NCBI RefSeq assembly: GCF_014695585.1
Contig: NZ_JACJON010000084.1
Coordinates: 1 to 64,000 of the forward strand
DNA from: Microcoleus sp. FACHB-831
GTDB taxonomy: Bacteria; Cyanobacteriota; Cyanobacteriia; Cyanobacteriales; FACHB-T130
Direction: 5' to 3'
Length of the DNA stretch: 64,000 nt
In this document: piece after piece, positions 1,928 through 27,332 of the stretch
How the letters are laid out: every line of letters starts with the position of its first letter
How positions within the stretch are numbered: the first letter of the stretch is position 1
Notes under the pieces: model-generated
Databases searched by the model: none
What the model was told of the DNA's origin: nothing
What the model saw: only the letters and a program-made list of their open reading frames with translations
Position numbers and translations under genes: made by a program

Positions 1928-1929
1928 GT

Positions 1930-7628: not shown

Positions 7629-7641
7629 CATGAACGATTAA

Positions 7642-7947: not shown

Positions 7948-7949
7948 GC

Positions 7950-9215
7950 TTAAAACCTAAGTCGGTGTCGATACTTGGCGACAGACTCTACAAGCCCAAT
8001 AGCCAGAAAGTTGGTCAGCATGGCGGATCGCCCATAGCTGATCCAGGGTAGCGGAATACCAGTTACTGGCGCGAGGCCGATGGTCATGCCAATGTTGACA
8101 ATAACCTGAAACACAATCATGGACAAGACGCCAATGGCTAGAAGAGAGCCAAAATTATCTCTAGCATTTTGGGCAATCAGGACTAAACGCAGGCAGACCA
8201 ACCAGAAGACGAACAGCAGGCACAAGCCGCCAACAAAGCCCAGTTCCTCTCCTATGGCTGAGAAGATGAAGTCTGTATGTTGTTCGGGGATAAAGTTGAG
8301 TTGGGTTTGCGTTCCTTTGTTGAGTCCTTGTCCCCAAAATTCGCCTGCTCCAATGGCAATGCGAGATTGGATCAGGTGATAACCTCCGCCCAAGGGATCT
8401 TTTTCGGGGTTAAGAAATAAAATCACCCGCTGTTTTTGATAGTCTTTCAAAACTCCCCAAATGATATGTCCTACTTCACCTCCCACAAGGTTTCCCAGGA
8501 TGGCTCCAGCGGTACCAAATTTGGGCCAAGGAAGAGTGCGCCATGCAATGACCCCCATGAGCGCCGTCCAGATTAACCATGCAGGAATATGCACGTTAAA
8601 GAGGATGGCTGAGATAACCGGAGAAGTCAGCAGCACCAACCACCCTGGATTGGCATTACCCCAGTAGAGCATACCCAATACTATGGCTCCAAATACTAGG
8701 GAGGTTCCCAGGTCAGGCTGCAAGAATACTAATATCCAAGGAACTCCTGTAATTGCTAAGGCTCTTAAAACAGCTGGAATGGTTGATGCGGGCTTTGCGT
8801 GGAGCAGGGCAGCTAAGGTGATTATTACGCCTACTTTGGCAAATTCTGAAGGTTGAAGGTTGAAGCCGCCAATGGCGATCCAACGTTGCGCTCCTTTGGC
8901 ACTAGCTCCAATTGCCATTACTGCTATCAGGGATAGATTGGTAATGGCATAAATAATCCAGTGCCAGTGAATGAGTACTTCGTAACGCGATCGCGCGATA
9001 AATAAGGCGAGGGTCAAGCCAATGCCGCCAATCAGCCAGTGCCACCACCAGTCTGTCTCGGCAGCCCTTAGTTCCGCGCTGCGGATCATTATCCCCCCAA
9101 ATACGGTCAGGCCGACGGTTAATAGCAATAGCATCCAGTCCAGCTCTTGCCAGGATGCGATCGCGCTGCGCCATCGACTACCAATCACCGATCTTTTCAA
9201 CGACCTTTGCAACAT
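7950..9215 (-). CDS. rodA: Rod-shape-determining peptidoglycan glycosyltransferase RodA
   Basis: A 421-residue SEDS-family protein with about ten transmembrane helices. Recognisable stretches are NLQPSEFAKVGVIITLAALL (the PSE/FAK signature), FLQPDLGTSLVFGAIVLG, LNFIPEQHTDFIFSAIGEELG (the EQHTDFIF core) and GLAPVTGIPLPWISYGRSAM (the PLPxxSYG signature near the C terminus). RodA polymerises lipid II glycan strands for cell elongation with a class B penicillin-binding protein. FtsW is the main alternative, but the PEQHTDFIFS form and overall length favour RodA. No PBP2 or mre gene is nearby. Confidence 0.9.
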   Translation of the reverse strand: MLQRSLKRSVIGSRWRSAIASWQELDWMLLLLTVGLTVFGGIMIRSAELRAAETDWWWHWLIGGIGLTLALFIARSRYEVLIHWHWIIYAITNLSLIAVMAIGASAKGAQRWIAIGGFNLQPSEFAKVGVIITLAALLHAKPASTIPAVLRALAITGVPWILVFLQPDLGTSLVFGAIVLGMLYWGNANPGWLVLLTSPVISAILFNVHIPAWLIWTALMGVIAWRTLPWPKFGTAGAILGNLVGGEVGHIIWGVLKDYQKQRVILFLNPEKDPLGGGYHLIQSRIAIGAGEFWGQGLNKGTQTQLNFIPEQHTDFIFSAIGEELGFVGGLCLLFVFWLVCLRLVLIAQNARDNFGSLLAIGVLSMIVFQVIVNIGMTIGLAPVTGIPLPWISYGRSAMLTNFLAIGLVESVAKYRHRLRF

Positions 9216-9221
9216 TTCTTC

Positions 9222-9280
9222 ATAAGTAAAAAGTAAAAATTAAAAAGGCAAAAGAAAGAATTTTTACTTTTACCTTTTGC
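9222..9280. terminator. AT-rich hairpin upstream of rodA, downstream of mrp
   Basis: AAAGTAAAAATT and AATTTTTACTTT flank a loop containing AAAAAGGCAAAAGAA. The loop and right arm recur after the CHAT gene at 27331-27372, so this is a dispersed repeat used as a probable terminator of mrp. Confidence 0.5.
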
Positions 9281-9296
9281 ATGAGTGTATTTTGCC

Positions 9297-10361
9297 TTAA
9301 GTTAAAGCGGCGACGGAGACGGATGCGGCAATTTGAGACGCGATCGCTACGAGTGCTTTAGCTGAAGCAGACTCAGGAAAGCCTACAACAATGGGGATAC
9401 CGCGATCGCCGCCCTCCCGCAAAGGAATTTCTAACGGTATCCTACCCAACAATGGCACTCCTAATTCCTTCGCTGTCTTCTCACCACCACCTGATCCGAA
9501 GATGTCATAGTGTCTATCCGGAAGATCCGGTGGAATGAAATAGCTCATATTTTCTACTATCCCCAATACAGACACTCCCAGCTGCTGGAACATCTTCAAC
9601 CCCTTGCGCGAGTCCAACAAAGCAACCGTCTGCGGCGTCGTCACAATAACCACCCCAGCCATTGGCACAGCCTGGGCCATTGTCAGTTGGGCATCGCCCG
9701 TTCCTGGTGGCATATCCACAATCAAATAGTCCAGTTCGCCCCACTGCACCTGGTAGAGGAACTGGCGAATAATACCATTCAACATCGGCCCGCGCCATAT
9801 TACTGGCTGATCCTTGTCAATCAAAAACCCCATCGAAACCAACTTAACGCCGTAGTTAAAAGCTGGTTCAAGTTCTTCACCCTTAGCACCCTGCCGCACC
9901 ATTACCCCGGCGTCAGCCAATCCCAGCATCGTTGGGTCGTTGGGGCCATAAATATCCGCATCAATCAAGCCAACTTTAGCCCCTGCCTGCGCTAAAGCAA
10001 CCGCCACATTCACCGCAACCGTGCTTTTGCCAACCCCACCCTTACCGCTGGAAATGGCAATAATATTTTTGACACCTGCAATCCCAGTGCGATCCGGAAG
10101 TGACTTTTGGTGGGGCGTCTCAGCCGTCACTTCTACAACCACATCGGTTACTTCAGGTAACTGCTTCTTAAGCGTCTGTTCGCATTCTTCAACTATGAAC
10201 TGCCGCAGCGGACAGGCGGGAGTTGTCAGCACCAAAGTAAAACTGACTTTGCCTGCGTCAACGGACACATTGCGAATCATGTTCAATTCCACCAAACTCT
10301 TACGAAGTTCGGGGTCTTGAACGGGTCGCAGCACTTCTAAAACCGATCCAGCATCTAGCAT
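9297..10361 (-). CDS. mrp: Mrp/ApbC-type iron-sulfur cluster carrier ATPase
   Basis: A 354-residue protein. Residues 1-80 are a MIP18/DUF59-like domain (VLRPVQDPELRKSLVELNMI, TTPACPL). The rest is a ParA/MinD-fold ATPase with the deviant Walker A SGKGGVGKST at 105-114, the LIDADIYGPNDPTMLG loop and the downstream DMPPGTGDAQLT switch. Members carry and deliver Fe-S clusters to apoproteins in the cytoplasm. NMSYF is present but a clear CxxC is not seen after it, as in several cyanobacterial members. A hairpin of the AAAGTAAAAATT type follows the gene at the rodA side. Confidence 0.9.
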   Translation of the reverse strand: MLDAGSVLEVLRPVQDPELRKSLVELNMIRNVSVDAGKVSFTLVLTTPACPLRQFIVEECEQTLKKQLPEVTDVVVEVTAETPHQKSLPDRTGIAGVKNIIAISSGKGGVGKSTVAVNVAVALAQAGAKVGLIDADIYGPNDPTMLGLADAGVMVRQGAKGEELEPAFNYGVKLVSMGFLIDKDQPVIWRGPMLNGIIRQFLYQVQWGELDYLIVDMPPGTGDAQLTMAQAVPMAGVVIVTTPQTVALLDSRKGLKMFQQLGVSVLGIVENMSYFIPPDLPDRHYDIFGSGGGEKTAKELGVPLLGRIPLEIPLREGGDRGIPIVVGFPESASAKALVAIASQIAASVSVAALT

Positions 10362-10647
10362 ATGACAATTGCATTCCTTACCTCAGCTATTACAACTGGG
10401 GTAACTTTATCATGGGTTCTTAAAGCATCTTAACGGTTTGGTTGTCTCCATGAGGCTGGGGCTGGGGGCATATGCTTAGCTCACTAAAGTTTATCTTGGC
10501 ATTGCACCAAGGATAGATACCCGCTCAGAGAACTGGTGCAAGCGTAAATTAAGACACCCGACGAGATTAGATAACTGTGAAAGTGGGTTATTTTGCAGGC
10601 TGGAGCCTAAATCGCTCTTAAAACTGAACCGCGATCGCGATCGTTCT
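10362..10647. other. Short intergenic region, nothing recognised
   Basis: About 290 bp upstream of mrp and downstream of the SRPBCC gene, containing a HIP1-like site near 10630. No gene or RNA was recognised. Confidence 0.5.
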
Positions 10648-11127
10648 TTAAAGAACCACTTCCTCCGCGGCTTGGGCTAACTCGGCTGCCACCCTCGCCG
10701 CATAAGGGCGGATCATCCACCATAGCAAAGGTGATAACCAACCGCGCAAGGTGACTGAATAAGACACGTAAGTACCGCAAACAGTAGATTCAACTTGATA
10801 CGTTACCCGTTTTTCAACTCCAGGGAGTGCCAGAAATCGCACAGACAGTAACTCCATCGGGCTGACGCGCTCAACAAAAATTCTTACAGGAATGGGAATT
10901 AAGCGAGTTACTACCTGATAAATTAAGCCTGGTTTGGCAATCAATCCCAAGGGAGCATTGGTGCTACTCAGTAACGGATTCCACGAAACATCAGCTAAAT
11001 TGATTAATTTTTGCCATAGAACATCTATTGAGGCAGAACTCAGGACGCGATACGTCCTTAAGAGGGAAAACTCGCACCTAAGACTCTCTCGACCAGCGAT
11101 GAACTTGAAGGAAAAATTGAAAATCAC
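10648..11127 (-). CDS. SRPBCC-fold (START/polyketide-cyclase-like) protein
   Basis: A 159-residue protein with the SRPBCC pattern: a first strand (FSLLRTYRVLSSASIDVLWQ), two short helices with the WNPLL segment, a run of strands (GLIYQVVTRLIPIPVRIFVE, ELLSVRFLALPGVEKRVTYQ, GTYVSYSVTLRGWL) and a long closing helix (YAARVAAELAQAAEEVV). Such folds bind hydrophobic ligands in a deep pocket, and no ligand can be named. The start is a GTG preceded by GGAAG six bases upstream, which fits a ribosome binding site. It is divergent from hemF. Confidence 0.65.
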   Translation of the reverse strand: MIFNFSFKFIAGRESLRCEFSLLRTYRVLSSASIDVLWQKLINLADVSWNPLLSSTNAPLGLIAKPGLIYQVVTRLIPIPVRIFVERVSPMELLSVRFLALPGVEKRVTYQVESTVCGTYVSYSVTLRGWLSPLLWWMIRPYAARVAAELAQAAEEVVL

Positions 11128-11357
11128 GACACGCTTCCAGCGCCAGCCCTACAAAGTATTAATATTATGCAAAGGACTTGAGCTTATAACCCCCCTCTAG
11201 CATACTTTGTAACTAGCGCAACATATCAGGGTCTGGACTCCAATGCTTAGCGATTAAATAACAACCAATTATTAGTCCAAAATGTCATTTAAAACTGGCG
11301 CGATCCAAGGTAGTCTAGAAGTCAAGTACCGGGATGGGTAGCCAGAAAAATTTGTTT

Positions 11358-12401
11358 ATGACAGCGACTTCTTCAACCGAAACCACAACTTCTAATTTTC
11401 TGCCCCCCTCGTCATCGAGAGAGAGGGTGAGCGAGTTTATGCGATCGCTGCAAGATGAAATCTGCGAAGCCTTGCAGGCGGCAGATGGCGCTGGCACATT
11501 TAAAGAAGATGCTTGGGAGCGAGAAGAAGGCGGCGGCGGTCGTTCCCGCGTCATCCGCGACGGAGCGGTCTTTGAACAGGGAGGGGTTAACTTTTCTGAG
11601 GTTTGGGGGGAACATCTACCACCATCCATTCTGACGCAACGCCCAGAGGCAGAAGGTCATCGATTTTACGCGACGGGCACTTCGATGGTACTGCATCCGC
11701 GCAATCCTTACATCCCAACCGTTCACCTCAATTACCGCTACTTTGAGGCAGGGCCAGTATGGTGGTTTGGCGGTGGCATCGATCTGACGCCCTACTACCC
11801 CTTTGCCGAAGATGTTGCCCACTTCCACCGCACCCTCAAACAAGCCTGCGATCGCCACCACCCCCAATACTACCCAGCATTTAAACTCTGGTGCGATGAA
11901 TATTTTTATCTCAAGCACAGACAAGAGACGCGGGGCGTCGGTGGCATCTTTTTTGACTATCAAGATGGTCAGGGTACTCTTTACCGGGGGCCGAATCCTT
12001 CAGGGCCAGCAGAGGCTTATAGTGCTGAAGTAGGCACTCTAGAGGCTCGCAATTGGGAAGATTTATTTGCCTTTGTCCAAGAATGCGGTAAAGCATTTTT
12101 ACCAGCTTACCTGCCTATAGTAGAGCGACGGCAAGCAATGGAGTATGGCGATCGCCAACGTAACTTCCAACTGTATCGCCGAGGCAGGTACGTCGAATTT
12201 AACTTAGTCTATGACCGGGGCACAATTTTTGGTCTTCAAACCAACGGGCGCACCGAGTCAATTCTCATGTCTTTACCACCCCTCGTGCGCTGGGAATACG
12301 GCTATCAACCGGAACCCAACACCCCAGAAGCAGAGTTGTATGAAATATTCTTGAAGCCTGGGGATTGGGCAAACTGGACTCCTGCTACCAAGAATATCTG
12401 A
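11358..12401 (+). CDS. hemF: Oxygen-dependent coproporphyrinogen III oxidase
   Basis: A 347-residue enzyme that uses O2 to convert coproporphyrinogen III to protoporphyrinogen IX, a cytosolic step toward heme and chlorophyll. Visible family blocks are [96 protein letters not shown] and [12 protein letters not shown]. The start at 11358 ([13 protein letters not shown]) is preferred because homologues begin with such a Thr/Ser-rich leader. An in-frame ATG at 11334 would add eight residues, and neither has a strong ribosome site. It is followed by the STAS gene on the same strand. Confidence 0.95.
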
Positions 12402-12493
12402 GTTAAAGTTAGACTACTGAAGATTTCATTTACAACAGCAATAGTAGCCAAATGCGGCTCCCCTTTAGATATAAAGAAGGTAGCCGCCGCCGC

Positions 12494-12500
12494 AAGGAGG
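12494..12500 (+). promoter_or_regulatory. Strong Shine-Dalgarno that fixes the STAS gene start
   Basis: AAGGAGG at 12494-12500 lies five bases before a GTG codon at 12506. It shows the gene begins there and not at the upstream in-frame ATG at 12452. Confidence 0.8.
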
Positions 12501-12505
12501 TATCA

Positions 12506-12874
12506 GTGATTCACATAGATCAGAGAACGCACACGACCCAAGATGGCACCACAGTCATCGTCTTAGCGCCCAGCGGGCGTCTAGATATCACTACTGCTTG
12601 GCAATTTCGTCTGAAATTGCAAGAGTGTATTTCCAAACTTAGCAGCCATGTAGTCGTTAATCTTGGTCAGGTTAATTTTATCGACAGTTCTGGATTGACC
12701 TCCCTAGTGGCTGGAATGCGCGACGCTGATAAAGTCAAAGGCAGCTTCCGCATTTGTAATGTCCATCCAGAAGCCAAGCTAGTGTTTGAAGTCACGATGA
12801 TGGATTCGGTTTTCGAGATTTTTGAAACCGAGGAAGAAGCTCTCGAAGGTGTCCCCCGGAGTATAGCTAGCTGA
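12506..12874 (+). CDS. STAS-domain anti-sigma factor antagonist
   Basis: A 122-residue protein with a GTG start chosen because a perfect AAGGAGG precedes it at five bases; upstream in-frame codons look untranslated. One STAS domain covers almost the whole protein: APSGRLDITTAWQFRLKLQE, VVVNLGQVNFIDSSGLTSLV (the DSSG serine being the usual phosphorylation site) and a C-terminal helix. Such proteins release sigma factors or partner-switching regulators when their serine is dephosphorylated. No anti-sigma kinase or phosphatase is adjacent, so its partner is unknown. It could equally serve a cyanobacterial partner-switch unrelated to sigma factors. Confidence 0.85.
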   Translation: MIHIDQRTHTTQDGTTVIVLAPSGRLDITTAWQFRLKLQECISKLSSHVVVNLGQVNFIDSSGLTSLVAGMRDADKVKGSFRICNVHPEAKLVFEVTMMDSVFEIFETEEEALEGVPRSIAS

Positions 12875-12876
12875 GA

Positions 12877-12935
12877 AAGATTTTAGATTTTAGATTTTGG
12901 TTGTTCCCTTAAATAAATTCCTAATCTAAAATCTT
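12877..12935. terminator. Heptamer-repeat hairpin between STAS gene and cpcT
   Basis: AAGATTTTAGATT (12877-12889) pairs with AATCTAAAATCTT (12923-12935) between two convergent genes. The arms are built of the TTTTAGA heptamer that recurs in rnpB and elsewhere, so it is both a short tandem repeat and a plausible shared terminator. Confidence 0.6.
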
Positions 12936-12938
12936 GGG

Positions 12939-13553
12939 TCAGACAGCTAATTCGGCAGAAAAATCTTGCCGTTTACTATAGCGAAAGGGGCCAAGTAGTG
13001 CCCCCCAAATGGCCTGTCCGGTTTGGGGGTCAATACCTTTGTCATAGGTCAAAAATTCTTCCTGTGTTGCCTCAAATCCCAAGGCGACATAGTAGGTTTG
13101 GTCTTGATAACTAAAGCAGCATCTCTCCGCCGTTGCGGGTGATGTAGAAAAATGATAATTGTTTGAGTCTAAGCGTCGCTGATTGACGTTCAGGGTGCAA
13201 CTCGGTAGGAACTCCATTTGTTCTGGAGTTAGTGCCTCGATTAAAGCTGGATTCCGACCGCCACCCCTAACAGCATTAGGGTCTTTCAGCATATAGTAAT
13301 TCACCTGCAAAAGTGCGGGGTCGGTATCGCTCTGACGCAGCCGCACGATCCGGGGACGATAGGGGTTGTCTAGCTTGAGGATATTAGCTTGCTCGGCAAA
13401 AAGCGTGATGCTGTCTTCCGCAAACAGATGGACTGGTCGCTGCCAGAGGCGGATGTGTACATACCAGGCAGGATCGGCTACAGCCTGTTCCCCATTATCA
13501 AATTCACCAGCCATGTACTTTGCCAGGGCAATTAGTTCAAGAGAAAAAGTCAT
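12939..13553 (-). CDS. cpcT: Phycobiliprotein chromophore lyase CpcT/CpeT
   Basis: A 204-residue protein of the CpcT/CpeT family: LELIALAKYMAGEFDNGEQA at the start, PAWYVHIRLWQRPVHLF, LFAEQANILKLDNPYRPRIV, then LPSCTLNV, CCFSY, LGFEATQEEFLTYDKGIDPQTG and a GPFRYSKRQDFS end. CpcT attaches phycocyanobilin to the beta-subunit cysteine near position 153/155 of phycocyanin. CpeT does the same type of job for phycoerythrin. The length matches the family. No phycobiliprotein gene is adjacent, so cpcT versus cpeT is a choice from general resemblance, with CpcT the more likely. Confidence 0.85.
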   Translation of the reverse strand: MTFSLELIALAKYMAGEFDNGEQAVADPAWYVHIRLWQRPVHLFAEDSITLFAEQANILKLDNPYRPRIVRLRQSDTDPALLQVNYYMLKDPNAVRGGGRNPALIEALTPEQMEFLPSCTLNVNQRRLDSNNYHFSTSPATAERCCFSYQDQTYYVALGFEATQEEFLTYDKGIDPQTGQAIWGALLGPFRYSKRQDFSAELAV

Positions 13554-13812
13554 AAGTTATACATTTTAGATTTTAGATTTTGGGAGCCTCGCCAGTAGGT
13601 AGTTTCAGAACTTCAACCCCACAATCCTAAACTAGATGGTATGAAAGCGTTGTGTCGGTGTCTAGAGTGCTGAGTGGCACTGGGATCGGCATTTTTTGCC
13701 TGCGCGGGGAGATACCGAATTTTAGACCACAAAGAGAGCAAGTGCGATCGCCCCGCTTGGCAAACGTGTCTTTAAGCGAGACAATAGGGTTACGTTGCCA
13801 TAAATGTTTTAC

Positions 13813-14550
13813 GTGAATAACGTCCGCACTGTCTCGGATACCAAGCGAGATTTCTATAACACTCACACCCGTCCCATTAACTCCATCTACCGGCGGGTGG
13901 TAGAAGAGTTGATGGTGGAAATGCATTTGCTTTCAGTAAATGTTGATTTCAGCTACGACCCAATCTATGCGCTGGGCGTGGTGACATCCTTTGAAAGGTT
14001 TATGCAAGCATATCGGCCCGAACGGGATAAAGACTCTATTTTTGAGGCTCTCTGTCAGGCAGTGCAGGCAGATCCCAAGAAGTACCAACACGATGCCCAA
14101 CAGCTACAAGCACTAGCTAGCCGTCTTTCTGCACAAGAATTAATTGCCTGGTTTACCCCAGATTCTCCCCCTCGGGAAGCTGCTGAGTTGCAGGATGCTG
14201 TTAGGGCGATCGCTAACAATCCTAAATTTAAGTACAGTCGTTTGTTTGCTATTGGTCTATATAGCCTCCTGGAACTAGCAGATCCTGACCTGGTTAAAGA
14301 CGAAAAACAACGGACTGACGCACTTAAGCAAATCTGTAACATCTTGCACGTGGCGGACGACAAGTTACAAAAAGACTTAGATCTGTATCGTGGCAATTTG
14401 GAAAAAATGGCTCAGGTGCAGGTAGTCCTAGAAGATGTCCTGAAAGCAGACCGCAAAAAACGCGAGCAACGAGCCGAAGATAAGGGGATGGTGGCTACAC
14501 CCCCCCCATCCGCAGGCACTCCTAAAGACGACGTACCTTCCGGCTCTTAA
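13813..14550 (+). CDS. thf1: Thylakoid formation protein Thf1/Psb29
   Basis: A 245-residue protein: NNVRTVSDTKRDFYNTHTRP at the start, IYRRVVEELMVEMHLLSVNV, FSYDPIYALGVVTSFERFM, a helical middle, and a C-terminal coiled stretch (LEDVLKADRKKREQRAEDKG). Thf1 associates with photosystem II assembly and with the FtsH protease complex at the thylakoid. A GTG start at 13813 is preferred because family members begin MNNVRTVSDTKR; an ATG three codons earlier would add only MFY. Neither has a clear ribosome site. The acidic Pro-rich tail is variable. It is convergent with the pentapeptide gene across a strong hairpin. Confidence 0.9.
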   Translation: MNNVRTVSDTKRDFYNTHTRPINSIYRRVVEELMVEMHLLSVNVDFSYDPIYALGVVTSFERFMQAYRPERDKDSIFEALCQAVQADPKKYQHDAQQLQALASRLSAQELIAWFTPDSPPREAAELQDAVRAIANNPKFKYSRLFAIGLYSLLELADPDLVKDEKQRTDALKQICNILHVADDKLQKDLDLYRGNLEKMAQVQVVLEDVLKADRKKREQRAEDKGMVATPPPSAGTPKDDVPSGS

Positions 14551-14592
14551 AGTAAACTTTTTACTTTTGAAAGCTTTGAGGCAAACTGCAAG

Positions 14593-14618
14593 AGAGGCGC
14601 GGATATATCCGCGTCTCT
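14593..14618. terminator. Bidirectional hairpin between thf1 and pentapeptide gene
   Basis: AGAGGCGCGGATA (14593-14605) and TATCCGCGTCTCT (14606-14618) pair with one G-T wobble, followed by AAAATTTTATTT. The convergent position and GC-rich stem fit a shared intrinsic terminator. Confidence 0.7.
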
Positions 14619-14628
14619 AAAATTTTAT

Positions 14629-15333
14629 TTAGCGGCGAACCTTGCCATCTGGCATGATGGTACGTTCCATCTTGACATTGGTCAGGTCAACTTTGCTGAC
14701 ATCGACGCCCCTAAGATTAGCACGGCTCAAATTGGCAGGTAGGGCAGATCCGGTACTTTTGTTAATTGTCAGGTTTGTAGGCACTTGTTGTTGATCCAGA
14801 CCAATTGCCGGGTTCATATTCGCACCCCGCAAGTCCGCACCATCAAGATCTGCACCAGCCATTTGAGCGCCGCTTAGGTCAGCATTCCTCAAGTCTGCCC
14901 GAATAAAGAAAGAACTTAGGTGGGCAAGTGTTAGTTTGGCATTCCGGAGATTGGCCTGACTTAGATTGGCGTTAATCAAGTTGGCTCTTGTGAGGTTGGC
15001 ATCTCTGAGGTTGGCTTTAGTCAAGTCGGCACACTTCTGCTTGTTGTTAGGCTGGTCAATACAAGTCAGGAGGGCACCTTCGAGATTAGCGCCAGTTAGA
15101 TCGGCTCCAGTTAGGTCGGCTCCACCGAGGTCGGCAAGCGATAGGTCGGCTCCACTCAGGTTAGCTCCCCTGAGATTGGCTCCCCTCAAGTCAGCGTTGG
15201 GGAGGATACATCCTATACATTGTTTGGTGGTTAGCAACCTGTTGACGATTACGGGATCTGCGGCGTTGGCTGAGTTGGCGGATGCGATCGCGCTCAATAG
15301 CACTGCACCAGTGGCTAGAATTTGTAGTTTCAT
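14629..15333 (-). CDS. Secreted pentapeptide-repeat protein
   Basis: A 234-residue protein with a signal peptide (LLSAIASANSANA before ADPVIVN). The body is about 100 residues of pentapeptide repeats of the A(D/N)LxX form (ADLRGANLRGANLSGADLSL, ADLTGADLTGANLEGALL), followed by a short Cys-containing interruption and more repeats ending RANLRGVDVSKVDL. Such repeats fold as right-handed quadrilateral beta-helices. In cyanobacteria many such proteins are secreted to the periplasm or lumen with no known function. The gene stands alone on its strand. Confidence 0.85.
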   Translation of the reverse strand: MKLQILATGAVLLSAIASANSANAADPVIVNRLLTTKQCIGCILPNADLRGANLRGANLSGADLSLADLGGADLTGADLTGANLEGALLTCIDQPNNKQKCADLTKANLRDANLTRANLINANLSQANLRNAKLTLAHLSSFFIRADLRNADLSGAQMAGADLDGADLRGANMNPAIGLDQQQVPTNLTINKSTGSALPANLSRANLRGVDVSKVDLTNVKMERTIMPDGKVRR

Positions 15334-15635
15334 GGTTTTTTTAATCCCCTAGCTAACGTGTTGGTGAATTATCATCTCTGGTTAGAGCTATTGGGATGAT
15401 AGGCTCAAGGCTGGGGGAATAGCAAAAATTATTTTTTTTACCAAATTTTTGCGCCTACTCTGCCGATAATCCCTGATTTTCTAGAATTCTAGCTGGAGAG
15501 ACAAGACAAAGATTTTTCAGCAAAAAAGCGATCGCCACTAGGCTTATTATCGGGTAAAGCCTTCGAGCGATCGCCTGTATTCTTCGTTTCATTCTAACTT
15601 CAGCGGCCATCCGCAAAGGTTTTTATGGTCTAGTC
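15334..15635. other. Intergenic region, small hairpins only
   Basis: About 300 bp with HIP1 sites near 15530 and 15568 and a short AGGCTT/AAGCCT arm pair. A small GTCTAG/CTAGAC stem overlaps the trxA stop at 15628-15641. No gene was recognised. Confidence 0.5.
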
Positions 15636-15953
15636 CTAGACTAAAGTTTTTAAATGCTGGATCAGCTTATCGGCTGGCACCACACCCTCAATGCGCTCTA
15701 CTGGCTGGCCATTTTTAAACAGTACCAGCGTCGGTAGGGCGTGAATTTGATAATTAGTAGCCAAATCTGGATAATTATCCGTATCAATTTTTACAACCAT
15801 GAGGCGATCGTTCATCTGGGTATTGACCTGCTCTAGAATTGGAGCCATCATCTGACAGGGGCCGCACCAGGTAGCGTAAAAATCGACCAAAACGGGCACG
15901 TCGGCACCAGAGAGTAAATCCTCAAAACTGTTGAACTGTTTTTTAACTGCCAT
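15636..15953 (-). CDS. trxA: Thioredoxin
   Basis: A 105-residue thioredoxin with the active site WCGPC at residues 29-33, the preceding VLVDFYATWC and the cis-proline segment IHALPTLVLFKNG. It reduces disulfides in target proteins in the cytoplasm using electrons from ferredoxin- or NADPH-thioredoxin reductase. The length matches the family. Cyanobacteria carry several thioredoxin types and the m-like type fits best by general resemblance. The gene lies 45 bp downstream of an unrelated secreted-protein gene. Confidence 0.95.
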   Translation of the reverse strand: MAVKKQFNSFEDLLSGADVPVLVDFYATWCGPCQMMAPILEQVNTQMNDRLMVVKIDTDNYPDLATNYQIHALPTLVLFKNGQPVERIEGVVPADKLIQHLKTLV

Positions 15954-15998
15954 AGGAGCAAAGGGCTTTTAGTCTTATGGCATAATTCTAGTGCAAAA

Positions 15999-16646
15999 TT
16001 ATGGAAAGACAGCGCCTTGAGTCGCGCCGTGTCTAGTTGTCCGGTCGTAGCGTATATTTCGCTCGTTATATTCTTTAATAATTTTTTGACCCGTAGCATT
16101 TGCTAGATCTCCGAGAGAGTTGCATTTAGGAGAATCTGGCAAATCTTTTAGAGCATCCAATATCTTATTACTAGCCTCAATAATGTAATTTTTATGACCA
16201 TCCTCATGAAGTTTCAACGCAGTTATAAATCTAGACCAGTTTCTTATTAGTTGTGGAGAAACATTAGCAGGGATATTCCATTTAGGAAAGGTAACTATCA
16301 CAGATGAATTTACTTTGGCTGAACTAATTTGACATCTAGTACCAAAAATTGAATAACCGTAACCAAAACGTATAGAGGCTGTCGTATTGGCATAAAAACG
16401 CTTACCAAAGCGGGGATCTTCTGGCCCCATTTGATTCATTTGAGAGCGTAATTGCTCGGCTGTAAAGCCAAATATTTCATAGTAGACTGTTTGGATAGTA
16501 ACTTTAGGGATAAATGACTGCTCAACGGTTACAGGTAGATTTGGTGCAGACATTTGGGCTTTTATTGAAGGAGTGAAATATGTAGCAGCTAGCAGTATGA
16601 GGATTGGTGTAAATATTGCTGTAACGGTAAAAGTTTTGAGGTTCAT
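15999..16646 (-). CDS. Predicted secreted zinc-protease-like protein with HEDGH motif (DUF922-like)
   Basis: A 215-residue protein read from the ATG at 16646 (MNLKTFTVTAIFTPILILLA), chosen because it opens a good signal peptide ending near SIKAQ; an in-frame ATG 57 bp upstream would bury it. The mature part has strands typical of DUF922-like proteins (SVIVTFPKWNIPANVSPQLI) and the motif LHEDGHKN, an HExxH-type zinc site, with a later helix containing DLANATGQKIIKEYNE. A third zinc ligand cannot be assigned with certainty. It is probably an exported hydrolase with unknown substrate. Confidence 0.65.
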   Translation of the reverse strand: MNLKTFTVTAIFTPILILLAATYFTPSIKAQMSAPNLPVTVEQSFIPKVTIQTVYYEIFGFTAEQLRSQMNQMGPEDPRFGKRFYANTTASIRFGYGYSIFGTRCQISSAKVNSSVIVTFPKWNIPANVSPQLIRNWSRFITALKLHEDGHKNYIIEASNKILDALKDLPDSPKCNSLGDLANATGQKIIKEYNERNIRYDRTTRHGATQGAVFP

Positions 16647-16723
16647 GTTGAATGCTTCGCGGATATTGTCTAAATAATATTTCCCCGTACAAATTGGCCG
16701 CAAATCGCCCTAATATAATCTAG

Positions 16724-17518
<795 letters not shown>

Positions 17519-20549: not shown

Positions 20550-23500
20550 ATGAAAGCTGCATCAAAACGCCAAAGTTTCTACAAAGTCATACTTCCTGCA
20601 ACAGGCGCAATTTATTGCTTAAGCAACGCTTACAGCACAACGCCCGCAGTTGCTCAATCAATTATCGCAGCACCTGACGGCACTGCCACCCTTGTCACCC
20701 CTAATGGCAACCGCATCGATATCAGTGGGGGAACACTTTCCGGAAACGGGGGAAATCTGTTTCACAGCTTTGGGCAGTTTGGCTTAAAAGAAGGTGAAAT
20801 TGCTAATTTTCTCTCTAATCCTGCAATTCAAAATATCTTAGCGCGGGTCGTTAATGGTCATCCCTGCATTATTAATGGCTTAATTCAAGTAACTGGAGGT
20901 AACTCCAACTTATTCCTAGCCAACCCAGCGGGAATCGTCTTTGGTGGTGGCGCTAGGCTGAACGTACCCGCCGCTTTTACCGCCACCACAGCTAATGGCA
21001 TTGGCATTGGCACAGGTTGGTTTAATGCTTCTGGCAACAATAATTATGCTGCACTTGTAGGAACGCCTAGCGCCTTTGCCTTCACAATGAATCAGCCAGG
21101 GGCAATTATCAACAGCGGCGATTTAGCAGTAAAAGAAGGACAAAGCTTAGTCTTATTAGGCGGAACCGTAGTAAATAGCGGCAAACTTTCTGCACCTGGG
21201 GGTCAACTATTAGTTTCTGCAATGCCAGGCGAAAGCGTGTTACGCATTTCTCAACCGGGACATTTGTTGAGTTTAGAAGTAGAAAAACCCAATTCCTGGA
21301 CATTGCCAATATTATCCTTACCGCAACTGCTAACAGGCGGGGGTGCGACTAATGCAAACACCCTACAAGCAAACAGCGACGGCACGGTTCAGCTAATAGG
21401 TTCGGGCATAAAAGTAGAAGCCGGAGATGCAGTAATTGTTAACAGTTCATCCCACGCTGGCACAGCAACCATTACAGCTGTCCGCAATTTGGCATTAGTA
21501 GAAAGCCAGGTTTCTACCACCGGGGATATGAACTTGGTTGCAGCGAATACTGTGCAAATTCGCGATAGTGTCGCGCAGCCATTTTCAGCTACATCGGGGG
21601 GAAATCTCTACGTTCAGGGCAATCAGGCGATTGATATTCTAGCGCTAAATCATCTAGCTAAAGGCACGCCGTTTCAGAGTGGTGGCGCTATGACATTTGT
21701 CAGCAATGGCAATATCTCAGGAGATTCGCACTTTGCCAGCGTTGGGCCATTCTCAATGCTTAATTTAGCAGGCGGGCCGGGTAATTTTATCAGTTGGTAT
21801 GACCCGATTATCAGTTCTGAGAGCGATGTGTCCTTGGGAGATTACACCGGGGCATCTTTGAAAATAGAAACGCTAGGCAGCATTACTGCTGGGAATATTA
21901 CTATCACTACGCCAGATACAACGCTGAGCGGTACCGACCCAGATATTGCTATTTTGACTAGCAGCCCCGCCTTAATTTTGCGGGCGGGAGTGGCTAAGTT
22001 GGTAAATCCAGTTTCTACGCCGATTGTCAATGCTGGGGGAACGGATATTAAGACACTTACCTACAACGCCACGAACCTCGGTGTGCTTAATGGAACCACT
22101 AACAGCAAAGCCACAAGCATCAATGATTCTGGTCAGGTGGTTGGTGCATCATATAATACTAACCTCGACCGCCAGGCTTTCCTCTACAGTAATGGCACGA
22201 TGAACGGCATCGGCACTTTGCCTGGGGATACTTACAGCCAAGCCACAGCCATCAATAGCAATAGTGCTGGCCAGATACAGATAGCTGGTTATTCTGGTGG
22301 CAAAGTCGAACGCGCTTTCCTTTACAGTGACGGCGCGATGACCAACCTGGGCACGCTGGTTGGGGGTACTGGTGGTTACAGCCAAGCTTATGGCCTAAAT
22401 AGTGTCGGCCAGGTGGTTGGTGAATCAACTGGCACTGGGCCTAATAGCCCCCGCGCATTTATCTACAGCGGCGGGACGATGAAAGACTTGGGGGCTTTGC
22501 CTGGGGGCACTTATAGCAGAGCCTATGGCATCAATGATTCCGGTCAAATTGTCGGTCGATCGAGTAGTCCTGGAGGCGATCGCGCTTATATCTATAGCAA
22601 TGGCACAATGCAAGACTTGGGGACTTTGCCTGGGGGCACTTTCAGCTTTGCCTATGCCATAAATAAGTCGGGTCAAGCGGCTGGGATTTCAGGCAGCACG
22701 GGGGGCGATCGCGCTGTCCTCTACAGTAACGGTACGATAACTAACCTGGGCGTCTTACCTGGAGACGTTAAGAGCGGTGCTTCAGGCCTCAATAATCTTG
22801 GTGAAGTAGTTGGCGAATCGCGTGACGCCAGCGGCAACCCCGGTCGTGCTGTCCTCTACAGCAACGGCACGATAACCGACCTCAACTTGTTAGTTAAGCC
22901 AGGATCGGGGTTGGATAAGTTGACCAACGCACAAGTTATCAACGATCAACACCAAATCGCCGGAACTGCAATGATAGGGGGTCAATTTAGAGCCTTCCGC
23001 GCTGACCGCGTTACGACGCCGGGAGGTGGCATTACTGTCGGCAATATCTCAACCGCTGGCGGGCCAGTAATTCTGCAAGCACCAAAAATTAACGTCATTG
23101 GCTCATCAATTGCGTCGAATGGGGGTGCGATTAACATTGATGGCCCACTGTTACTCAATAGCACTACGGGTGCTGTCAACGTTAACTCTGGGGGTGGGAG
23201 CATCGCCTTCAATCAGTCGGTGAATGGCGCTCAAAATTTGAGTGTAGATGCTGGAACGGGGAATATCGACTTTAAGGGTGCGGTAGGCGATACTGCTGCT
23301 TTAGCCAGTTTGAATATTAACAGCGGTAAAGAGATTAATGTAGGAAGCATCAATGCAACTGGCGCGGTGGGTATAAAAATCAGTGGCAACATTCAGACGG
23401 GCGATGTTAGAAGTAATGGCCTCAGTCTCTCCAGCAGCGGGGGTACGGTTACTATCCCCGGCAATATTACCAGTACTGGGGGAGCGCTACTTTTTCAAGG

Positions 23501-26500
23501 GCTTCAGATTAATATTACTAGCTCATCGATTGTCTCCAATGGAGGTGCAATAACTTTCGATGGCGCAACACAGCTAGCGAGCAGCACGGGTGCTGTCAAT
23601 ATTAATTCAGGCGATGGTGATATCAGCTTCAAAAGCACTCTAGATGGCAAACAAGATTTGACCTTAAGCTCTGGTAAAGGCAATATCACCTTTAATGGGG
23701 CGGTAGGTAGTATCAATCCTTTAGACGACTTTATTGTTAGCGAGTCTAAGGACTTCTTTGCAGGAATATTTAATGCAACTGGCACGGTAGGCGTAAAAGC
23801 GAGCGGCAATATTCAGGCGGGCGATATTAGCAGCGATGGCCTTATTTTTGCCAGCAGCGGTGGTGAAATTAATCTCCCTGGCAATATTTTCAGCTTAGGC
23901 GGGCCGTTACTTTTTCAAGGTACGAAGATTAATATTAATACCTCATCGATTGTCTCGAATGGAGGCGCGATCGCTTTCGATGGCCCGACTTTTCTCAATA
24001 GCAGTTCTGGTGCTGTCAACATCAGTTCAGGAGATGGTGATATTGCTTTCAAAAATACATTAGATGGCAATCAAGATTTAAGTTTAAGTGCTGGTACTGG
24101 GAATATCGCTTTTCAAGGAGTAGTTGGTAGCACCAAGGCTTTAGATAACTTGACTGTTAGCAGCGCTAAAGATGTTGGTGCAGCAGACATAACTACTGCT
24201 GGAAAGGTAGAAATCAAAGACAGCGGCAATATTAATACTGGGAATATCTCCGCCAATCTAGGAATTAGTCTTACCAGCACTGATGGCAATATTAATACCG
24301 TCAAGTTAAGTTCTAGCTCCAATCAAGATAGCGCGATCGCACTTTCTAGTCAAAAAGGAAGTGTCAGCAGTGGCGATATTACTTCGGCTGGAAAGGTAGA
24401 AATCACAGACGGGGGCAATATTAATACGGGGAATATATCCGCCAGTCTAGGGATTAGTATGACGAGTGCTGGAGGAAATATTAATACCCGCAACCTAAAC
24501 TCTAGCTCCGGTTCAGATAGCGCGATCGCACTTTCTAGTCAAAAAGGAACTGTGACTGGCGATATCAATTCGGCTGGTAAGGTACAAATAACAGATAGCG
24601 GCAACATTAATACGGGGAATATCTCCGCCAATGAGGAGATTAATCTTAAAAGTACTGGCGGCAGTATTAGTACCATCAACTTAACCTCTAATTCCAATCT
24701 AGATAGCGCGATCGCACTTTCTAGTCAAAAAGGAACTGTGACTGGCGATATCAATTCGGCTGGGAAGGTGGAAATAACAGACATTGGCAATATTAATACG
24801 GGCAATATATCCGCCAGTCTAGGGATTAGTCTTACCAGCACTGAGGGGAATATTAATACCATCAACCTCAAATCTAGCTCCGGTTCAGATAGCGCGATCG
24901 CACTTTCTAGTCAAAAAGGAACTGTGACTGGCGATATCAATTCGGCTGGGAAGGTGGAAATAACAGACATTGGCAATATTAATAGCGGTAATATTGCCGC
25001 AAATGGGGGGATTAATCTTAAAAGTACTGACGGCAATATCAATACCCGCAACCTCAACTCTAGCTCCAGTCAGGATAGTGGAGCAGCGATCGCACTTTCT
25101 AGTGAAAAAGGAAGTGTCACCAGTGGCGATATTACTTCAACGGGAAACTTATCAGGCGGGGATATAAATGTTATTGGTAAGCTGGGAATTACAACAGGAC
25201 AGATCGACTCAAGCCAGACGGGTGTCGCGCCTGCTGATGCCGAAGGTAAAGCAGGTAATGTTACTCTCAAATCGGACAAAAATATTGTAGTTGGCTACAT
25301 TAATGCCCAAGGTGGAAGTGTTGGCACTGGAGGTAAAGTTGACATTACAACGGCGGAATTTTTCCAGGCTAACTCCACGTTAACAGACCAAAATGGAGTA
25401 GAAGCAAGCATTTCTACCGCCGGGGGTAAGGAAGGCGGCGAGATTTTTATTCGACATGGAGGTAAAGGAACTACTCCATTCCAAGTGCAAATGAGCGATC
25501 GCTCAACTACCCCACCTAACGGTACTGTTGGTGCTATTACCAGCGGTAGTGAGAGAAAAATCTCGAATCAATCATTCGAGCATAGCTATACTCTGGGCAA
25601 TATTCACATCATTACTGAATCCACACCAACGCCGTCACCAACGCCGTCACCAACGCCGTCACCGTCACCAACGCCGTCACCGTCACCAACGCCGAATGGA
25701 GCTTTACCCCCGTCCGCACGACCGATCGTACAGCCTACAGCACAGCCGTTGCCAACTGTAACCGTTCGACTGTCGGACGATCCCATCTTAAAGGTGGAGA
25801 AAGATATGTCTGATAGCGATCGCAGCCCAGAAGCAGAACAGTCCGACGCACCTTCAGAGGATAATCGCTCCTTTAGCGCTAACGCACCTACAGCACTACA
25901 GCCGCGATCGCTACCGCCTAATTCCAGTAAAACATCTGTCACCTTACCTGACGCAGAATTAGACTCCCTAGTAGCTGCAATGGAGGAGCCGCTTACCCGT
26001 CAGTTTGAGCAACACGCTGGTAAAACTCCTAGTACTCGCATTGCTACTCTGGCAACAGTTCAATCTAGCTTGAGCAGAATTCAAACAGTAACGGAAATAA
26101 AACCAGCGATCGTCTATATAGTTTTTGCTCCTGCAACGACCGCATCGAGATCGGCTTCTAAGAGTTTAATGAGATCTGCTTTGCCTAACACTGTTTCTTC
26201 TATGTTTGGCGAAGAAGCAAATTTTCCAGAACTAGCATCGAATCAGAGAGCGATCGCGCAATCCACAATCAAAGCGAAGCGTCCAAATAGAGACAACGAA
26301 AACCTGGAATTAGTAATAGTAACTTCGAGTGGCAGACCGATTCGCAAACAGGTGCCAGTCACGCGCCAGGAAGTCCTTAAAGCCGCTAACCAATTACGCA
26401 GTGAAATAACCAAAATCAGCAGAAAAGACAACTACCTCACGAGTTCTCGAAAACTCTATAAATGGCTCATAGAACCGATAGAAGCTGATTTAAACAGCCT

Positions 26501-27332
26501 CAATATCCAGAATCTTGTTTTTGTTATGGACAGCGGCTTGCGTTCTCTTCCCATCGCGGCTCTCCACGACGGTCAAAAGTTCTTAGTAGAGAAATATAGC
26601 GTCGGTTTGATGCCCAGCCTGAGCTTAACCGATACAACTTATGTCGATATTAAGAAGGCTGCTGTTCTGGCTATGGGAGCTAGTGTATTTCCAGCAGCGC
26701 AACGCCAAAAACCCTTACCCGCCGTTCCCATCGAGTTAGCAACTATTACCGAGGAACTGCGGCAAGGTAAATTCTTCCTCAACGAAGCTTTCACCTTGGA
26801 AAATTTAAAGGCGCAACGCCAGCAAAAACCAGCCCAGATCGTCCATTTAGCTACTCACGGTGAATTTAATTCAGGGGCGATTAGCCAATCTTACATACAA
26901 CTATGGGATACCAAGCTGCGATTAGACCAAATCCGCCAGCTTGGTTTGCACAACCCCCCTGTAGAGTTATTGGTGTTGAGTGCGTGTCGCTCGGCTTTGG
27001 GTAATGAAGATGCAGAGTTGGGCTTTGCTGGTTTGGCTGTACAGGCGGGGGTAAAGTCGGCGATCGCTAGTTTGTGGTACGTCAGCGATGAAGGTACTTT
27101 TGGCCTAATGACAGATTTTTACCAAAAATTGCAGAAAGCTCCCATTAAAGCAGAGGCGTTACGACAAGCCCAAGTGGCGATGCTCAAAGGAGAGGTACGT
27201 CTGCAAAAAGGCTATCTTGTCACCTCTAGCGGCAATGTGCTACTCTCACCGGAACTAGCGAAGTTAGGCAACAAAGATCTGTCGCATCCTTACTATTGGG
27301 CGGCTTTCACGATGATTGGCAATCCTTGGTAA
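20550..27332 (+). CDS. Giant TPS-type exoprotein with HAF repeats and C-terminal CHAT protease domain
   Basis: A 2260-residue exported protein. Residues 1-36 are a signal peptide ending near VAQS. About 40-180 is the filamentous-haemagglutinin-type secretion (TPS) domain (LFHSFGQFGLKEGEIANFLS, LFLANPAGIVFGGGARLNVP). About 500-815 holds repeated HAF units of the form DLGTLPGGTFSFAYAIN. About 837-1205 has three 140-residue beta-helix units (starting near 837, 976, 1117). About 1213-1530 has five tight 62-residue units. A Pro/Thr/Ser linker (PTPSPTP) follows at about 1690-1716. The end is a CHAT caspase-like domain with H2103 (HLATHG) and C2146 (SACRSALG). TPS proteins are secreted by an outer-membrane TpsB; none is in the window. 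The cleavage target is unknown. HAF units between head and CHAT tail look unusual. Confidence 0.8.
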   Translation: MKAASKRQSFYKVILPATGAIYCLSNAYSTTPAVAQSIIAAPDGTATLVTPNGNRIDISGGTLSGNGGNLFHSFGQFGLKEGEIANFLSNPAIQNILARVVNGHPCIINGLIQVTGGNSNLFLANPAGIVFGGGARLNVPAAFTATTANGIGIGTGWFNASGNNNYAALVGTPSAFAFTMNQPGAIINSGDLAVKEGQSLVLLGGTVVNSGKLSAPGGQLLVSAMPGESVLRISQPGHLLSLEVEKPNSWTLPILSLPQLLTGGGATNANTLQANSDGTVQLIGSGIKVEAGDAVIVNSSSHAGTATITAVRNLALVESQVSTTGDMNLVAANTVQIRDSVAQPFSATSGGNLYVQGNQAIDILALNHLAKGTPFQSGGAMTFVSNGNISGDSHFASVGPFSMLNLAGGPGNFISWYDPIISSESDVSLGDYTGASLKIETLGSITAGNITITTPDTTLSGTDPDIAILTSSPALILRAGVAKLVNPVSTPIVNAGGTDIKTLTYNATNLGVLNGTTNSKATSINDSGQVVGASYNTNLDRQAFLYSNGTMNGIGTLPGDTYSQATAINSNSAGQIQIAGYSGGKVERAFLYSDGAMTNLGTLVGGTGGYSQAYGLNSVGQVVGESTGTGPNSPRAFIYSGGTMKDLGALPGGTYSRAYGINDSGQIVGRSSSPGGDRAYIYSNGTMQDLGTLPGGTFSFAYAINKSGQAAGISGSTGGDRAVLYSNGTITNLGVLPGDVKSGASGLNNLGEVVGESRDASGNPGRAVLYSNGTITDLNLLVKPGSGLDKLTNAQVINDQHQIAGTAMIGGQFRAFRADRVTTPGGGITVGNISTAGGPVILQAPKINVIGSSIASNGGAINIDGPLLLNSTTGAVNVNSGGGSIAFNQSVNGAQNLSVDAGTGNIDFKGAVGDTAALASLNINSGKEINVGSINATGAVGIKISGNIQTGDVRSNGLSLSSSGGTVTIPGNITSTGGALLFQGLQINITSSSIVSNGGAITFDGATQLASSTGAVNINSGDGDISFKSTLDGKQDLTLSSGKGNITFNGAVGSINPLDDFIVSESKDFFAGIFNATGTVGVKASGNIQAGDISSDGLIFASSGGEINLPGNIFSLGGPLLFQGTKININTSSIVSNGGAIAFDGPTFLNSSSGAVNISSGDGDIAFKNTLDGNQDLSLSAGTGNIAFQGVVGSTKALDNLTVSSAKDVGAADITTAGKVEIKDSGNINTGNISANLGISLTSTDGNINTVKLSSSSNQDSAIALSSQKGSVSSGDITSAGKVEITDGGNINTGNISASLGISMTSAGGNINTRNLNSSSGSDSAIALSSQKGTVTGDINSAGKVQITDSGNINTGNISANEEINLKSTGGSISTINLTSNSNLDSAIALSSQKGTVTGDINSAGKVEITDIGNINTGNISASLGISLTSTEGNINTINLKSSSGSDSAIALSSQKGTVTGDINSAGKVEITDIGNINSGNIAANGGINLKSTDGNINTRNLNSSSSQDSGAAIALSSEKGSVTSGDITSTGNLSGGDINVIGKLGITTGQIDSSQTGVAPADAEGKAGNVTLKSDKNIVVGYINAQGGSVGTGGKVDITTAEFFQANSTLTDQNGVEASISTAGGKEGGEIFIRHGGKGTTPFQVQMSDRSTTPPNGTVGAITSGSERKISNQSFEHSYTLGNIHIITESTPTPSPTPSPTPSPSPTPSPSPTPNGALPPSARPIVQPTAQPLPTVTVRLSDDPILKVEKDMSDSDRSPEAEQSDAPSEDNRSFSANAPTALQPRSLPPNSSKTSVTLPDAELDSLVAAMEEPLTRQFEQHAGKTPSTRIATLATVQSSLSRIQTVTEIKPAIVYIVFAPATTASRSASKSLMRSALPNTVSSMFGEEANFPELASNQRAIAQSTIKAKRPNRDNENLELVIVTSSGRPIRKQVPVTRQEVLKAANQLRSEITKISRKDNYLTSSRKLYKWLIEPIEADLNSLNIQNLVFVMDSGLRSLPIAALHDGQKFLVEKYSVGLMPSLSLTDTTYVDIKKAAVLAMGASVFPAAQRQKPLPAVPIELATITEELRQGKFFLNEAFTLENLKAQRQQKPAQIVHLATHGEFNSGAISQSYIQLWDTKLRLDQIRQLGLHNPPVELLVLSACRSALGNEDAELGFAGLAVQAGVKSAIASLWYVSDEGTFGLMTDFYQKLQKAPIKAEALRQAQVAMLKGEVRLQKGYLVTSSGNVLLSPELAKLGNKDLSHPYYWAAFTMIGNPW
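24190..25150 (+). repeat. 186-189-bp direct repeats inside the giant exoprotein gene
   Basis: The block GATAGCGCGATCGCACTTTC starts at 24327, 24516, 24702 and 24888, and a variant (GATAGTGGAGCAGCGATCGC) at 25074, so spacing is 189, 186, 186, 186 bp, with the nearby text nearly identical. Each carries a HIP1-type octamer. It encodes the 62-residue repeats and indicates recent duplication by slippage or recombination. Confidence 0.85.

What the first reader, a model, noticed from the sequence alone, without database searches (positions are those of the whole stretch)
20550..27332. Exported giant joining TPS secretion, HAF repeats, beta-helix repeats and a CHAT protease tail
Order seen directly: signal, TPS domain, HAF block (about 500-815), 3 x 140 then 5 x 62 residue repeats, Pro linker, CHAT with H2103 and C2146. 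TPS-CHAT combinations occur in cyanobacteria, but insertion of a HAF array in the stalk seems unusual. A surface-tethered caspase-like protease could act between cells, in filament cell death or in kin recognition.
Basis: partly seen in the sequence, partly recalled or inferred. Interest (0 to 1): 0.7.

Follow-up and report, generated by a model that had tools for sequence, protein, structure and literature searches.

The report
Exported protease with plug-in propeller head
A cyanobacterium encodes a giant protein, apparently exported, that ends in a caspase-like protease and carries a propeller-shaped domain, probably a binding head, set into one loop of its stalk; the exported-protease design is common in its relatives, but this head is rare and sits where a few relatives carry a lectin or another domain.

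Summary
In detail: one 2,260-residue frame has a signal-like start, TPS domain, HAF array, 3 x 140 and 5 x 62 residue repeats, Pro linker and CHAT with H2103 and C2146. TPS-CHAT proteins are ordinary here: 9 in this genome, 77 distinct ones read. The HAF version is rare: 3 of 100 genomes searched, the own one included, and 1 of 52 named loci with the same stalk, Trichocoleus FACHB-40. HAF is not stalk: it is modelled as a seven-bladed propeller set between two rungs. There, two TPS relatives carry another, unnamed domain and one, a strand further on, a legume lectin; none of these three has fused CHAT. The tail's model matches Csx29/TPR-CHAT and separase; 75 of 77 TPS-CHATs, the window's included, keep His and Cys. 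Best reading: an exported caspase-like protease on a stalk with an exchangeable recognition head. Export, ligand, substrate and activity are untested. No TpsB lies on the window's contig; two ShlB-type ones lie elsewhere.

The parts
20550..27332 (+). ORF of the TPS-HAF-CHAT protein, 2,260 aa
20550..20657 (+). signal-peptide-like start (aa 1-36, ends AVAQ), read by eye
   Evidence: sequence; no signal-peptide program was run
20676..21260 (+). TPS secretion domain, aa 43-237, with NPAGI motif
   Evidence: PF05860 7.5e-38; TIGR01901 1.8e-21
21327..21989 (+). conserved stalk segment (called MID here), aa 260-480, ending in the rung ALILRAG
   Evidence: 119 distinct proteins, the window's included, match its profile at 75 bits or more; 52 loci in genome contigs
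22062..23009 (+). HAF array = predicted seven-bladed beta-propeller, aa about 505-820
   Evidence: TIGR02913 1.3e-53; AlphaFold model, ten-residue means of pLDDT 73-95 there; PDB matches
21969..23054 (+). insertion site: rung ALILRAG (aa 474-480) - insert - rung GGGITVGNIST (aa 825-835)
23022..24194 (+). 3 x 140-residue repeats, aa about 825-1215
24198..25132 (+). 5 x 62-residue repeats
25624..25694 (+). Pro/Ser/Thr linker
25950..27329 (+). CHAT domain with its N-terminal helical and strand part, aa about 1801-2260
   Evidence: AlphaFold model mean pLDDT 85.2, pTM 0.84; residues corresponding to aa 1864-1910 are under 50; PF12770
26856..26858 (+). codon of His2103
26985..26987 (+). codon of Cys2146

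Best explanation
An exported recognition-and-cleavage protein. Shown by sequence or model: signal-like start, TPS domain, repeat stalk, one propeller set between two rungs of the stalk, Pro-rich linker, C-terminal caspase-like CHAT domain with an intact His/Cys dyad. Inferred: it crosses the outer membrane through a shared TpsB encoded elsewhere; the repeats fold into a beta-helix outside; the propeller sticks out sideways and binds a ligand (glycan or protein) on the own filament, a neighbour or a phage; the CHAT domain, on a flexible linker, cleaves a protein close to the bound ligand. HAF would be one of several heads that can be exchanged at this site, so that one export-plus-protease frame serves with different recognition domains.
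For: Domain calls (3, 4). Propeller model and matches: CylK Z 30.0, 289 residues, 3.1 A. Insertion between two rungs that are kept in relatives without HAF. Other domains at this site in TPS relatives: an unnamed domain in L117 and L152, related to each other (34% over 304 columns, 1e-33), and, one strand further on, a legume lectin (PF00139 1.4e-37) in L102. A C-type-lectin-like stretch deeper in the stalk of the TPS-CHAT protein L124 (21.6 bits, Pfam cut-off 22.6). CHAT model: TPR-CHAT/Csx29 Z 28.1, separase 24.8, gingipain 18.7. Dyad kept in 75 of 77 TPS-CHATs, the window's included; median number of cysteines 0 between TPS and CHAT and 1 in the CHAT part, exactly 1 in 61 of 77. Purifying selection between G001 and G004: dN/dS 0.20 in HAF, 0.08 in CHAT.
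Against: No ligand, substrate or activity is known, and export is inferred. No TpsB on the gene's contig. No surface anchor was sought. Propellers have many roles, and I found no tested function for HAF (one paper of the library holds 'HAF repeat'). The three TPS relatives with another domain at this site (L102, L117, L152) have no fused CHAT, so exchange of heads within TPS-CHAT itself rests on HAF and on the sub-threshold match in L124. The model of the propeller rests on two sequences, and its flanks are of low confidence, so the beta-helix and the direction of the propeller are inferred. A sole cysteine near the C-terminus is also seen in two other CHAT proteins of this genome (L072, L084), so it is no proof of export.
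Confidence: 0.43

Rival explanations
1. The CHAT domain is a maturation protease: it cuts its own stalk or other TPS proteins so that the adhesin part is released or trimmed, and the propeller is part of the released adhesin.
For: Caspase-like domains as processing peptidases of large exported proteins are described (PMC3482391, passages). 48 of the 125 TPS proteins read lack CHAT (some are cut by contig or region ends), and TPS and CHAT can be neighbouring genes (L102; L072). Stalk lengths vary greatly.
Against: CHAT is the last domain, with nothing behind it to release; processing caspases are said to sit just upstream of a toxin domain. No cleavage site was identified or sought.
Confidence: 0.25
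2. A contact-dependent toxin: the tail is delivered into neighbours and kills by proteolysis.
For: Toxins with a TPS-type leader and caspase-like domains as C-terminal toxins are described (PMC3482391, passages).
Against: Between the window's protein and its Trichocoleus-type relatives the N-terminal part and the tail are both about 54% identical while the 140- and 62-residue repeats find no match: a conserved tail with a variable stalk, the reverse of polymorphic toxins. The next gene encodes a Cpn60 chaperonin, not a small immunity protein. The row for type V toxin systems in PMC3482391 does not list cyanobacteria.
Confidence: 0.12
3. A phage-related surface protein: a receptor, or a decoy or sensor that cleaves phage proteins.
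For: A phage-resistant Nostoc 7120 substrain (RD5) has a mutation in a 'filamentous hemagglutinin N-terminal domain-containing protein', and another (RD2) in a CHAT protein (PMC10811720, passages).
Against: The passages do not say that the RD5 protein has CHAT or HAF; RD2 carries two mutations, and the authors tie its CHAT gene to heterocyst control. Nothing links the window's protein to phage.
Confidence: 0.08
4. An adhesin in which HAF and CHAT are only passengers.
For: Stalk repeats differ between relatives; one sister in the same genome has R and S at the two catalytic places.
Against: 75 of 77 keep the dyad; low dN/dS in HAF and CHAT.
Confidence: 0.12

Closest known systems
Cyanobacterial TPS-CHAT proteins (PF05860 + PF12770)
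   Same: TPS domain, stalk and CHAT with His/Cys in one frame; 9 in this genome, 77 distinct read.
   Different: Among those read, only the window's protein and the Trichocoleus-type ones (G001, G004; L095 is the latter again) carry a HAF array.
HAF-repeat proteins (TIGR02913)
   Same: Same repeat; one of 398 aa is in this genome at contig C25 (L071), 34% identical over 372 columns.
   Different: The other HAF frames found are mostly of 315-694 aa, without TPS or CHAT in those examined.
Csx29 / TPR-CHAT (Craspase protease) and separase
   Same: Fold of the tail: Z 28.1 and 24.8; a His/Cys dyad (that of Csx29 and separase recalled).
   Different: Those work inside the cell and have helical repeats upstream (recalled); sequence search of the PDB finds no significant match. 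Here the domain is on a TPS stalk.
TpsA adhesins and CdiA-type toxins of the two-partner system
   Same: TPS domain and repeat stalk.
   Different: Conserved protease tail; no toxin pre-domain in the Pfam scan and no immunity-like gene behind it; TpsB not on the contig.

Membership tests
Two-partner secretion exoprotein (TpsA) | N-terminal TPS domain with NPxG-type motif | tested here: met
Two-partner secretion exoprotein (TpsA) | Sec signal peptide | tested here: inconclusive
   36-residue start ending AVAQ seen by eye; no predictor was available
Two-partner secretion exoprotein (TpsA) | a TpsB (ShlB/FhaC) in the genome | tested here: met
   ShlB at C13 (3.4e-27) and C52 (1.9e-28); none on the window's contig
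Two-partner secretion exoprotein (TpsA) | right-handed beta-helix stalk | tested here: inconclusive
   repeats and short strands in the flanks of the propeller, of low confidence; the 140/62 repeats were not modelled
Two-partner secretion exoprotein (TpsA) | export across the outer membrane | not testable with these tools
   needs fractionation
CHAT protease (clan CD) | CHAT domain above curated cut-off | tested here: met
   249.2 bits, cut-off 24
CHAT protease (clan CD) | catalytic His and Cys | tested here: met
   H2103, C2146; kept in 75 of 77 TPS-CHATs, the window's included; one cut off, one R/S
CHAT protease (clan CD) | caspase/separase-like fold | tested here: met
   predicted model
CHAT protease (clan CD) | proteolytic activity | not testable with these tools
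   needs an assay
HAF repeat family (TIGR02913) | repeats above cut-off | tested here: met
   178.6 bits, cut-off 22.65, six stretches
Beta-propeller | four-stranded blades in a closed ring | tested here: met
   predicted only: strands group into seven blades, the first strand (aa 505-511) taken by me to complete the last; matches
Polymorphic (CDI-type) toxin | variable C-terminal toxin with an immunity gene directly behind | tested here: not met
   tail conserved; next gene is Cpn60
Orthocaspase / metacaspase (Peptidase_C14 p20) | p20 domain | tested here: not met
   Pfam scan at E up to 1 lists CHAT and no Peptidase_C14

The most novel reading that the evidence does not exclude
TPS-CHAT proteins are a modular, outward-facing counterpart of the cell's inner sensor-protease systems: one conserved export-plus-protease frame with a fixed plug-in site in the stalk that accepts different recognition heads (HAF propeller; in TPS relatives a legume lectin and an unnamed domain; a C-type-lectin-like stretch further along), so that a cyanobacterium carries a set of differently aimed extracellular caspase-like proteases, with at least one double-dead member (R/S) that may act as a decoy or regulator.
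Probability: 0.33. Interest if true: 0.78.

Novelty: new variant of a known kind. Interest (0 to 1): 0.55.

Why it matters
CHAT proteases are known mainly from inside the cell (Csx29 of Craspase, separase relatives, HetF; recalled, with entry titles and passages on HetF). Here a whole family looks built for export, keeps its catalytic pair in 75 of 77 members read, and in a few cases has extra domains set into the stalk. If such heads direct cleavage, cyanobacteria would have a way to cut proteins on their own surface, on neighbours or on phage, and HAF repeats, for which I found no tested role, would gain one that can be tested directly.

Tried and rejected
Stalk-only reading of HAF: rejected, since the array is modelled as a ring of blades and both neighbouring rungs are kept in relatives without it.

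A linked TpsB or operon: not found. The neighbours are an epimerase (other strand) and Cpn60. The Trichocoleus-type gene has other neighbours: no other frame of at least 150 aa of L088 or L089 matched a frame of the window (one search names some of them).

Two separate insertions of HAF: a quick TPS+MID tree of 80 rows set the window's protein apart from the Trichocoleus-type ones, but holding them together gave a log-likelihood 16 higher, missed by the quick search (p 0.71). In the HAF tree one clade is not rejected (p 0.45). So one insertion is possible and is not shown. In one search I meant to leave out the most divergent arrays, but other copies of the same arrays stayed in, so the set was close to that.

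Loop lengths by regular expression: one search handled 60 rows; 20 could not be measured. Of the 36 measured without HAF, 25 gave 23-46 residues; the other 11 gave 51-261, in part because the pattern missed the next rung (in L117 it stopped inside the insert). A second pattern (91 of 93 rows, median 28) gave false values too, for example 106 for the Trichocoleus-type proteins. The site was therefore judged by reading the stretches printed and, for six proteins, by the distance from the rung ALILRAG to GGPVIL (356 in the window's, 340 in both Trichocoleus-type ones, 309 in L117, 265 in L102; no such motif in L152). Inserts may have been missed; L141 has an aromatic-rich stretch there that Pfam does not name and I did not count it.

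Solved relatives by sequence: none significant for the CHAT tail or the HAF array (best E 0.1). Plasmids: 17 records match the HAF part with its flank; of the 15 listed I saw none annotated as TPS or CHAT, and I did not open them. Pfam names nothing in the HAF stalk proteins L078 and L077. Papers: no paper holds 'CHAT domain' with 'filamentous hemagglutinin' and 'cyanobacteria', or with 'two-partner secretion'; the listings showed me none on TPS-CHAT proteins. The library holds open-licence papers only.

Coverage limits: one search scored all candidates but in G092 (66 of 92); one search scored at most 5 and at most 7 a genome, so both undercount (G000 has 12 matches and 3). One search listed 80 rows; I fetched 60, leaving out the 17 weakest of other genomes and the 3 of the own genome; a notebook entry says 79 wrongly. 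The scan finds only loci that hold one of two short peptide patterns, and says that records of the window's own genome may be left out. L125 is cut by its contig end; L070 and L074 begin off their contigs.

Full report
What is there. The frame 20550-27332 encodes 2,260 residues. Pfam finds TPS at 43-237 and CHAT at 1965-2258; NCBIfam finds six HAF stretches and the NPXG adhesin domain. DNA repeats give three 140-residue and five 62-residue units. Over 300 nt, three copies of the 62-residue repeat are 63, 81 and 87% identical to the reference copy, and the pair of 140-residue repeats 68%. The only cysteines are C23, C106 and C2146.

The family. The genome has 37 CHAT, 15 TPS and 4 POTRA_2 matches. 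Nine frames, the window's included, hold TPS and CHAT together; two more CHAT frames (L070, L074) start at contig ends. Of the nine, only the window's has HAF. A scan of genome contigs (84,980 species by its description) with the stalk-plus-HAF alignment gave 52 loci, all in records that bear cyanobacterial names; HAF lies in one, Trichocoleus sp. FACHB-40. Its contig has the length of G004:C95 (105,861), so the two are taken as the same. With further genomes I read 125 distinct TPS proteins, 77 with CHAT (distinct means that the TPS stretches are not letter for letter the same, and near-copies count apart). My searches listed no paper on TPS-CHAT proteins.

How rare is the HAF version. Of 100 genomes (own one included; all candidates scored but in G092), 25 have HAF; frames over 700 aa occur in five: G000, G001, G004, G070, G087. 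G001 and G004 have TPS-MID-HAF-linker-CHAT at 1,485 and 1,477 aa, 53-54% identical to the window's protein in the two parts that align, with no match to its 140/62 repeats. So 3 of the 6 genomes of this family have the order. G070 and G087 (another family) have HAF followed by 140-type repeats, with no TPS or CHAT found; for G070 the match to the window's protein runs from the stalk through HAF into the repeats (E 2e-47), for G087 from within HAF into the repeats (E 5e-31). In 386 genomes spread over the phylum, 28 have a HAF array, and no frame but the window's is over 700 aa (at most 5 candidates scored a genome).

What HAF is. AlphaFold on residues 395-870 with one relative gives mean pLDDT 75.2 and ten-residue means of 73-95 over the array; its strands group into seven four-stranded blades if the first strand (aa 505-511) completes the last blade (my reading). 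The 50 rows listed in each are, as far as I recognise the names, proteins with propellers; CylK leads with Z 30.0 over 289 residues. A shared fold shows no function. The array sits between the rungs ALILRAG and GGITVGNIST; relatives without HAF mostly have a short loop there (25 of 36 measured gave 23-46 residues; flanks). Of 119 distinct proteins that match the stalk segment at 75 bits or more, the window's included, I saw a foreign domain there in six: HAF in the window's protein, L075 and L076; an unnamed domain in L117 and L152, related to each other; and, one strand further on, between GSITVGNIS and GGPVIM, a legume lectin in L102. L117, L152 and L102 have no fused CHAT, but L102 is followed by a CHAT frame that overlaps its end. 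L124, a TPS-CHAT of Coleofasciculus, has a C-type-lectin-like stretch deeper in the stalk (21.6 bits, Pfam cut-off 22.6), and L202, a TPS protein without CHAT, a laminin-G-like domain. This is my ground for calling the HAF propeller a head; it is an analogy, not a test.

The tail. The model (mean pLDDT 85.2, pTM 0.84, 30 sequences) matches TPR-CHAT/Csx29 (Z 28.1, 327 residues), separase (24.8), gingipain (18.7) and caspases (about 13). Of 77 TPS-CHATs, 75 keep H and C, one is cut off (L125) and one (L066, 3,285 aa, beside an intact 1,919-aa sister) has R and S. The median number of cysteines is 0 between TPS and CHAT and 1 in the CHAT part; 61 of 77 have exactly one there. That the cysteine kept is the catalytic one argues for activity; that cysteines are few suits an exported protein (recalled rule). 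As a caution, two other CHAT proteins of this genome also have one cysteine in the last 320 residues. dN/dS between G001 and G004 is 0.20 in HAF, 0.22 in TPS, 0.08 in CHAT and 0.15 overall (counts are small: 19 synonymous and 13 other changes in HAF).

History. One insertion of HAF common to the window's protein and the Trichocoleus-type ones is not rejected, nor is it shown. The gene's surroundings differ.

Leads from papers (passages only). A phage-resistant Nostoc 7120 substrain has a mutation in a filamentous-hemagglutinin N-terminal protein and another one in a CHAT protein among two mutations (PMC10811720). A peptide SLSLLGGTVV assigned to a Nostoc CHAT protein was listed for a water extract with a last figure of 0.012, which I take for its expectation (PMC9895726); it resembles SLVLLGGTVV in the TPS part here, so that protein may be a TPS-CHAT: weak. 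PMC3482391 describes caspase-like domains as processing peptidases or C-terminal toxins.

Conclusion. The architecture is real, and rare in its HAF part; the TPS-CHAT frame is ordinary for these cyanobacteria. The most useful new point is that the HAF array is probably a propeller set at a site of the stalk that takes other domains in a few TPS relatives. Function remains inferred.

Noticed in passing
L066 (G000:C67:182500-202000), frames 1428-7187 and 7604-17461: Tandem TPS-CHAT genes: one with an intact His/Cys dyad, the next with R and S at both places. Of nine CHAT stretches fetched from G001, G003, G004 and G005, eight show both His and Cys; in the ninth (L213) His is seen and my Cys pattern found nothing.
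   Followed up: partly
L072 (G000:C13), minus strand: TpsB (651 aa, ShlB), then TPR-CHAT (862 aa), then a TPS frame (917 aa within the locus, 1,010 aa) in a row: a split version of the same set.
   Followed up: partly
L069 (G000:C21) and L181, L186, L094: TPS-CHAT proteins with TPR-like repeats before CHAT; TPR confirmed by Pfam in L069, seen by eye in the others.
   Followed up: partly
L078 2213-6301 and L077 540-3611 (G070, G087): HAF plus 140-type repeats in proteins without TPS or CHAT; the C-termini share an AEVKT-like stretch that looks nuclease-like to me, but Pfam names nothing.
   Followed up: partly
L079, L080, L081, L082: HAF arrays behind RTX-type calcium repeats (Pfam HemolysinCabind in L079; the others by eye).
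   Followed up: no
L085, L086, L087 (G005, G003, G002): TPS+MID proteins of 888, 884 and 836 aa without CHAT, in genomes of the same family; L085 and L086 have a Pro-rich part near the end.
   Followed up: no
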